Source: Verrucomicrobiota bacterium (GTDB taxonomy: Bacteria; Verrucomicrobiota; Verrucomicrobiia; Chthoniobacterales; SZAS-18). From it: a stretch of 64,000 nucleotides of DNA. Positions 5,447 to 5,855 of the stretch are shown one piece after another (position 1 is the first letter of the stretch; the number at the start of each line of letters is the position of its first letter). The translations under genes were made by a program, and so were the position numbers. The stretch covers positions 1 through 64,000 of the forward strand of contig JAFEGM010000092.1 of assembly GCA_018240025.1 (NCBI GenBank), written 5' to 3'. Under the pieces are notes generated by a model. The model was not told the origin of the DNA. It saw only the letters and a list, made by a program, of their open reading frames with translations, and made no database searches.

Positions 5447-5855
5447 GAGGCTGGAGACTGGAGACTGGCGAGCGAGATTTGATCCGGGAGCCGAAGGCCG
5501 TGGACTGCGCGCGGCTTGCCGCCGCTTTCATCGAGGCGCCTGCGGCTTCGGTCGATTCGAGGACGAGGACGAGGACGAGGACGAGGACGAATTCCCGGCT
5601 ACGGAGTGGTGTCCTGTGCGAGGACCGGGAAGCGGCCACGCCTCGCTGATCGAACGGATGGCGGTGATCATCGTCGCATCGATCGCCGCTGCAGGCCCAT
5701 CCCCCCGCAGGATACCGTCATCGGCAATCCTCCTCGTCGTCGTCCTCGTCCTCGAATCGACCAAAGCCGCAGCCGCCTCGATCAAAGCGGCGGCAAGCCG
5801 CGCGCAGTCCACGGTCTTCGGCTCCCGGTTTTCGTCTCCTGTCTCCAGCCTCTCG
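5447..5855. repeat. Palindrome A: about 409-bp layered inverted repeat with (GGACGA)n arms and conserved core
   Basis: This accounts for most of the 550-bp gap between two converging genes. Outer arms (about 5447-5555 and 5756-5855) begin with GAGGCTGGAGACTGGAGACT and pair almost continuously, through GGGAGCCGAAGGCCGTGGAC and GCGCGCGGCTTGCCGCCGCT. Inner arms are GTCGATTCGAGGACGAGGAC followed by further GGACGA units (5551-5590), pairing with the CGTCCTCGTCCTCGAATCGA side (5731-5760). The centre (about 5591-5730) has its own smaller pairing, GGCGGTGATCATCG with CATCGATCGCCGC. The segment 5541-5770 is about 95% identical to 22126-22361. It may act structurally, as a MITE-like element, or as a bidirectional terminator; no transposase is encoded. 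Confidence 0.9.

What the first reader, a model, noticed from the sequence alone, without database searches (positions are those of the whole stretch)
5447..5855. Two giant palindromes (A and B) share a near-identical 230-bp core inside unrelated outer arms
Segment 5541-5770 and segment 22126-22361 differ by about ten substitutions and one 6-bp insertion (about 95% identity), although their outer arms are wholly different: CTGGAGACTGGAGA type in A, TCGAA type in B. The core is itself a palindrome: GGACGA-repeat arms around a conserved 120-nt centre with its own smaller hairpin. This looks like a modular element that inserted into, or templated itself within, pre-existing palindromes. No transposase is encoded, so it would be a MITE- or REP-like element mobilised in trans, or a hairpin RNA gene.
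Basis: partly seen in the sequence, partly recalled or inferred. Interest (0 to 1): 0.85.

Follow-up and report, generated by a model that had tools for sequence, protein, structure and literature searches.

The report
Nested palindromic DNA repeats between genes
Two large DNA palindromes in an uncultured bacterium share a centre because both contain a copy of one small dispersed repeat whose arms (not its centre) occur dozens of times in the genome, mostly just after genes end, which resembles known miniature mobile DNA but with arms built from simple repeats.

Summary
In detail: 5541-5770 and 22126-22361 differ by 10 substitutions and one 6-bp indel, inside unrelated outer arms. The reading is inverted, though. 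The 140-nt centre occurs only twice in the 6.3-Mb genome. What is dispersed is the arm: a cap (GGCCTGCGGCTTTGGTCGATTC) plus a GAGGAC/GACGAC hexamer tract (F1 here). I found 131 caps at 43 sampled sites, usually as inverted pairs around locus-specific centres. The outer arms of A and B are two further dispersed palindrome families; A's outer palindrome also occurs at C25:152221-152544 around another centre without F1. Palindromes number about 38 per Mb, against 0 in 2.5 Mb simulated. They favour convergent gene ends, and F1 typically starts 2-18 bp after a stop codon. An F1 half-copy sits in frame inside dnaE2 where relatives lack it. The two arms of a palindrome co-vary. A 28-bp part of the hexamer tract recurs in other PVC-group genomes in opposite polarity; one relative has such an element with a fixed centre in several copies. 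Best reading: a REPIN/MITE-like non-autonomous element with simple-repeat arms, sitting inside other palindromes. No mobilising enzyme was found, and nothing supports an RNA gene.

The parts
5447..5540 (+). Palindrome A, outer left arm (family F6: CTGGAGA heptamers + GGAGCCGAAGGCCGTGGACTGCGCGCGGCTTGCCGCCGC)
   Evidence: 31 matches in the genome, self included; same outer palindrome at C25:152221-152544 around another centre
5541..5590 (+). F1 left arm of A: cap CTGCGGCTTCGGTCGATTCG + GAGGAC tract
   Evidence: Dispersed arm, 131 caps at 43 sampled sites
5591..5730 (+). Centre (spacer) of A
   Evidence: Two copies in the genome only; fold z -0.5
5731..5770 (-). F1 right arm of A, inverted
5771..5855 (-). 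Palindrome A, outer right arm (F6, inverted)
   Evidence: 85% to the left arm
22044..22121 (+). Palindrome B, outer left arm (family F2: TTCGAA / GAAACTC heptamers)
   Evidence: 57 matches in the genome, self included
22122..22175 (+). F1 left arm of B
22176..22315 (+). Centre (spacer) of B, 94% identical to that of A
   Evidence: fold z -1.9
22316..22366 (-). F1 right arm of B, inverted, with a 6-bp insertion relative to A
22367..22443 (-). Palindrome B, outer right arm (F2, inverted)
   Evidence: 95% to the left arm

Best explanation
The shared core is one copy, in each of two palindromes, of a non-autonomous dispersed element (F1). F1 consists of two inverted copies of a roughly 50-60-bp arm (cap + GAGGAC/GACGAC hexamer tract) around a spacer that differs at almost every site. 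F1 has spread to dozens of places, mostly intergenic, most often immediately after stop codons, and also into the centres of other palindrome families (F6 in A, F2 in B). Shown: the arm is the dispersed unit, the inward orientation, the nesting, the position relative to stop codons, one empty site, and within-locus co-variation of the arms. Inferred: that the arm-spacer-arm unit moves as a hairpin-forming unit acted on in trans (REPIN/MITE-like), with arms kept alike by hairpin-templated repair or conversion, and that A and B share a spacer because one complete F1 element was copied from the other or from a common source.
For: Arms are multi-copy and the centre is not. 20 of 22 sites that carry both orientations have the inward arrangement. 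Outer arms of A and B are separate dispersed families, and A's outer palindrome exists without F1. An F1 half-copy in frame in dnaE2 where five relatives lack the segment. Caps lie 2-18 bp from stop codons in 31 of 37 stop-facing arms, never within 37 bp of a start codon; spacers with palindromes are longer than those without (41-550 bp against a median of 24), as insertion predicts. In G025 arms with a fixed centre recur on several contigs.
Against: No target-site duplication resolved and no mobilising enzyme found: none of seven Y1_Tnp genes is flanked by F1, and genes beside F1 sites are not one paralogous family. Many sites have one arm only or tandem arms. Shared centres in this genome are local (A/B 16.6 kb apart; C110 pair under 1 kb apart), which fits conversion or local duplication as well as transposition. 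The dnaE2 insertion is a half element plus other sequence, not a clean arm-spacer-arm unit.
Confidence: 0.55

Rival explanations
1. The palindromes are by-products of replication: short tandem repeats expand by slippage, and inverted arms arise and are kept alike by template switching at hairpins. A and B share a core through local ectopic gene conversion between two F1-armed palindromes.
For: Arms of several unrelated families are hexamer or heptamer tandem repeats; the two arms of a locus are more alike than arms of different loci; shared centres in this genome are local.
Against: The non-repetitive cap is conserved at over 40 dispersed sites, which slippage does not make; insertion into dnaE2; shared centres on different contigs in G025.
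Confidence: 0.25
2. F1 and the other palindromes are kept by selection as 3'-end stem-loops that end transcription or protect mRNA from exonucleases, serving both convergent genes.
For: Convergent junctions enriched (15 of 31 against 18%, p about 1e-4); caps abut stop codons; extreme stem stability.
Against: Ordinary convergent spacers are already short (median 24 bp), so insertion alone explains the abutment; no U-tract terminator in A; many palindromes lie between codirectional or divergent genes; same-genus G001 has few palindromes.
Confidence: 0.15
3. A single ancestral segmental duplication made the two copies, with no element involved.
For: The centre has exactly two copies, 16.6 kb apart on one contig.
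Against: The homology ends at the outer edges of two inverted F1 caps, and caps with hexamers recur at over 40 other sites.
Confidence: 0.05

Closest known systems
REPINs (inverted REP doublets, PMC3116915)
   Same: Inverted pairs of a short dispersed repeat around a spacer, forming hairpins, intergenic, non-autonomous; single and clustered arms also occur
   Different: Arm is a cap plus a hexamer tract of about 50 bp, not a REP hairpin; spacers up to several hundred bp; no RAYT flanked by it
Heptameric G-rich repeats of Xanthomonas and Nostoc (Rehm et al. 2015, PMC4692102)
   Same: Intergenic tandem heptamers close to stop codons; in Xanthomonas 70-75 cases of two repeats in convergent orientation forming an inverted repeat
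   Different: There one GGGAATC-type repeat; here several unrelated arm families with non-repetitive caps, F1 being a hexamer, and nested palindromes
MITEs
   Same: Short, non-coding, inverted ends, dispersed, one demonstrated empty site
   Different: No autonomous partner or target duplication found; internal part not conserved in this genome
GTAG-tagged REPs and RAYTs (PMC3733652)
   Same: Present in the same genome (174 copies) and beside palindrome A
   Different: F1 has no GTAG tag and no short REP stem-loop; it is a separate family
IS elements that target REP palindromes (PMC1525189)
   Same: Mobile DNA inserting into palindromic repeats, as F1 appears to have done in A and B
   Different: Those are full IS elements with their own transposase

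Membership tests
REPIN | Inverted doublets of a short dispersed repeat, mostly intergenic | tested here: met
   20 of 22 two-orientation sites inward; intergenic in nearly all
REPIN | Repeat is a REP hairpin | tested here: not met
   F1 arm is a cap plus hexamer tract without a REP stem or GTAG tag (PMC3733652)
REPIN | Associated RAYT (Y1_Tnp) gene flanked by the repeat | tested here: not met
   Seven Y1_Tnp genes in the genome, none with F1 words within 1.5 kb; one is flanked by a different GTAG REP
MITE | Inverted terminal repeats, no coding capacity | tested here: met
MITE | Multiple copies with conserved interior | tested here: inconclusive
   Two copies here; several on different contigs in relative G025
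MITE | Empty sites and target-site duplication | tested here: inconclusive
   Empty site in dnaE2; no target duplication resolved
MITE | Autonomous transposon with the same ends | tested here: inconclusive
   Only Y1_Tnp genes and F1-neighbouring genes examined
Heptameric tandem-repeat inverted pairs (Xanthomonas type) | Tandem heptamer arms in inverted pairs | tested here: met
   Met for F2 and F3; F1 itself is a hexamer with a cap
Intrinsic terminator | Stem-loop followed by a T run | tested here: not met
   0 terminator-like sites in 5300-5950
Structured RNA gene | Known family or excess secondary structure of the centre | tested here: not met
   No Rfam match in the window; centre z -0.5 and -1.9. 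Covariation and expression were not testable

The most novel reading that the evidence does not exclude
One sequence-independent process writes inverted copies of short tandem repeats at gene 3' ends in PVC bacteria. Families with unrelated arms (hexamer F1, heptamers F2-F6) share the same architecture, the same placement after stop codons and nested growth, and turn over completely between species of one genus. The 28-bp hexamer module shared by Verrucomicrobiota and Planctomycetota MAGs in opposite polarity would be a recognition site of that machinery.
Probability: 0.15. Interest if true: 0.85.

Novelty: new variant of a known kind. Interest (0 to 1): 0.52.

Why it matters
It shows that giant bacterial palindromes can be layered: a dispersed inverted-repeat element occupying the centre of other palindrome families, with simple-repeat arms instead of REP hairpins. 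If the unit is mobile without a RAYT, its enzyme is unknown and can be looked for. In this genome the palindromes are dense enough (about 240 by extrapolation) to shape gene 3' ends and assembly breaks, and the same 28-bp hexamer module recurs across PVC phyla.

Tried and rejected
Centre as the mobile element: rejected, two copies only and nothing comparable elsewhere. RNA gene: no support. RAYT mobilisation of F1: no RAYT flanked by F1. Orthologous empty sites for A and B: failed, the flanking homologues are about 30% identical or have different neighbours. First named-genome search with a cap-containing 36-mer: no match. A BLAST-based palindrome finder missed known cases and was replaced. 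A fuzzy-regex unit finder missed arms and was replaced. The whole genome was not available as a file, so palindrome counts come from 852 kb. Literature: nothing found in the held library on such palindromes in Verrucomicrobia.

Full report
What was claimed and whether it is there. The two palindromes exist as described. The core at 5541-5770 and 22126-22361 aligns with 10 substitutions and one 6-bp insertion, and similarity stops abruptly on both sides. Both are large inverted repeats, and A folds far better than shuffles (z -19). Simulated sequence of the same composition gives none at the threshold used (0 in 2.5 Mb), while 852 kb of the real genome gives 32.

The repeated part is the arm, not the centre. 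In the 6.3-Mb genome of the window (G000, 121 contigs), the whole core finds over 200 matches, but those listed besides A and B cover only the arms, roughly positions 1-58 or 181-230. The centre alone finds only A and B, and no comparable copy in 146 other genomes of the order (two weak fragments at E about 5e-4), nor in plasmids or phages. The arm unit reads GGCCTGCGGCTTTGGTCGATTC followed by a tract of GAGGAC/GACGAC. I sampled 43 sites with 131 such caps; where both orientations occur, 20 of 22 sites have caps outside and hexamers inside, often with several tandem units per side. Centres at the other sites are almost all different. An exception is C110:118094-118925, where two F1 palindromes under 1 kb apart share a centre in inverted orientation.

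The outer arms are other dispersed families. The outer arm of A gives 31 matches in the genome. At C25:152221-152544 two of them form the same outer palindrome, 84-90% identical, around a different 149-nt centre without F1. The outer arm of B gives 57 matches. So A is F1 inside an F6 palindrome and B is F1 inside an F2 palindrome. Further arm families in the window and sampled contigs are GGCRATA (F3, e.g. 42792-42932), AGGAGGA (F4) and AAGAGCC-like (F5); most are heptamer repeats.

Position. Among 31 palindromes in unselected contigs, 15 lie between convergent genes, against 18% of gene junctions (p about 1e-4). For F1, the cap edge lies 2-18 bp from a stop codon in 31 of 37 stop-facing arms, and never closer than 38 bp to a start codon. 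Convergent spacers without a palindrome have a median of 24 bp, those with one 41-550 bp. This is what insertion into ordinary short spacers, with promoters avoided, would give; selection for a 3'-end role is not needed but not excluded. Gene calls come from my own codon-usage caller and are approximate.

An empty site. At C40 an F1 half-copy lies in frame inside dnaE2 (error-prone polymerase alpha subunit; named from the protein sequence, my reading). The translated segment runs GLPADSVDSRTRTRTRTRTTTT... In G001 (same genus), G005, G006, G026 and G019 the homologous protein matches on both sides of this segment, about 80 residues, and lacks it; in G001 only 12 nt separate the two matched blocks. 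Two of these were aligned residue by residue. This shows that F1 sequence arrived at a pre-existing site, although the inserted stretch also holds other sequence.

Arms co-vary. F2 and F3 arms behave in the same direction. Arms must therefore be copied together or corrected against each other, as hairpin-forming units would be.

Relatives. Same-genus genomes differ sharply: in samples of 113-181 kb, G001 has 5.5 palindromes per Mb and G002 89 per Mb with other arm words, against 38 here. The 28-bp tract TCGAGGACGAGGACGACGACGAGGACGA occurs in 8 of 388 genomes of the phylum sample (up to one mismatch) with a zero reversed-pattern control, and in multiple copies in several Verrucomicrobiota, Planctomycetota and PVC-group MAGs. 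Every paired case seen there has the opposite polarity, hexamers outside. Single-copy hits in Arthrobacter, Streptomyces and similar lie in long open frames and are probably acidic coding tracts (inference).

Mechanism. The best-supported view is a non-autonomous inverted-repeat element that disperses as a unit and can land in, or replace, the centre of other palindromes; REPINs are the nearest functional analogue. Membership fails on two tested features: the unit is not a REP, and no Y1_Tnp gene is flanked by it. True GTAG REPs are present separately (174 copies), flank a Y1_Tnp gene at C82, and one sits at 5413-5437 beside A. Alternatives are replication template switching or conversion, which explains the local sharing of centres and arm homogeneity but not the dispersed non-repetitive caps, and a selected 3'-end function.

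Limits. Only part of the genome was read as sequence. No target duplications were resolved, and no transposase family other than Y1_Tnp was screened. A and B have no syntenic counterpart in the relatives tried.

Noticed in passing
window 22044-22443: Palindrome B overlaps the start codons of both divergent neighbours (a beta-CASP nuclease gene and an RsmB/F-type methyltransferase gene), so both would share the same inverted leader of about 60 bp.
   Followed up: partly
window 5413-5437: GTAGTCCGCACTCCCCGAGTGCGGC, a GTAG-tagged REP, lies beside palindrome A. The genome holds 174 copies; ten relatives have none. Copies flank a Y1_Tnp gene at C82:20191-20418.
   Followed up: partly
window 10161-10464, 42792-42932, 45318-45523, 8825-8928: Four more palindromes in the window, with TTCGAA/GAAACTC, GGCRATA and CACGAAG-type arms.
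   Followed up: partly
L137 (C40:48000-57500), minus strand: The dnaE2 gene carries, besides the F1 half-copy, further in-frame repeat tracts (TPTPTLTPTLTP, APPLPSSPAPPLPSSS), and its frame seems lost further on.
   Followed up: partly
L152 (G025:C521): In a multi-copy hexamer-armed element, the centre is inverted relative to its outer ends compared with other copies, as if the inverted arms had recombined.
   Followed up: no
L139 (C57:8129-9462): Opposed F1 arrays flank a small gene that looks like a four-helix-bundle (23S intervening-sequence type) protein; naming is from reading the sequence only.
   Followed up: no
L247 (PWTM01, PVC group bacterium): The contig carrying the hexamer module also carries GCGGCGGCAAGCCGCCGCACTCCA, like the outer arm of palindrome A, so the repeat vocabulary seems shared across PVC genomes.
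   Followed up: no
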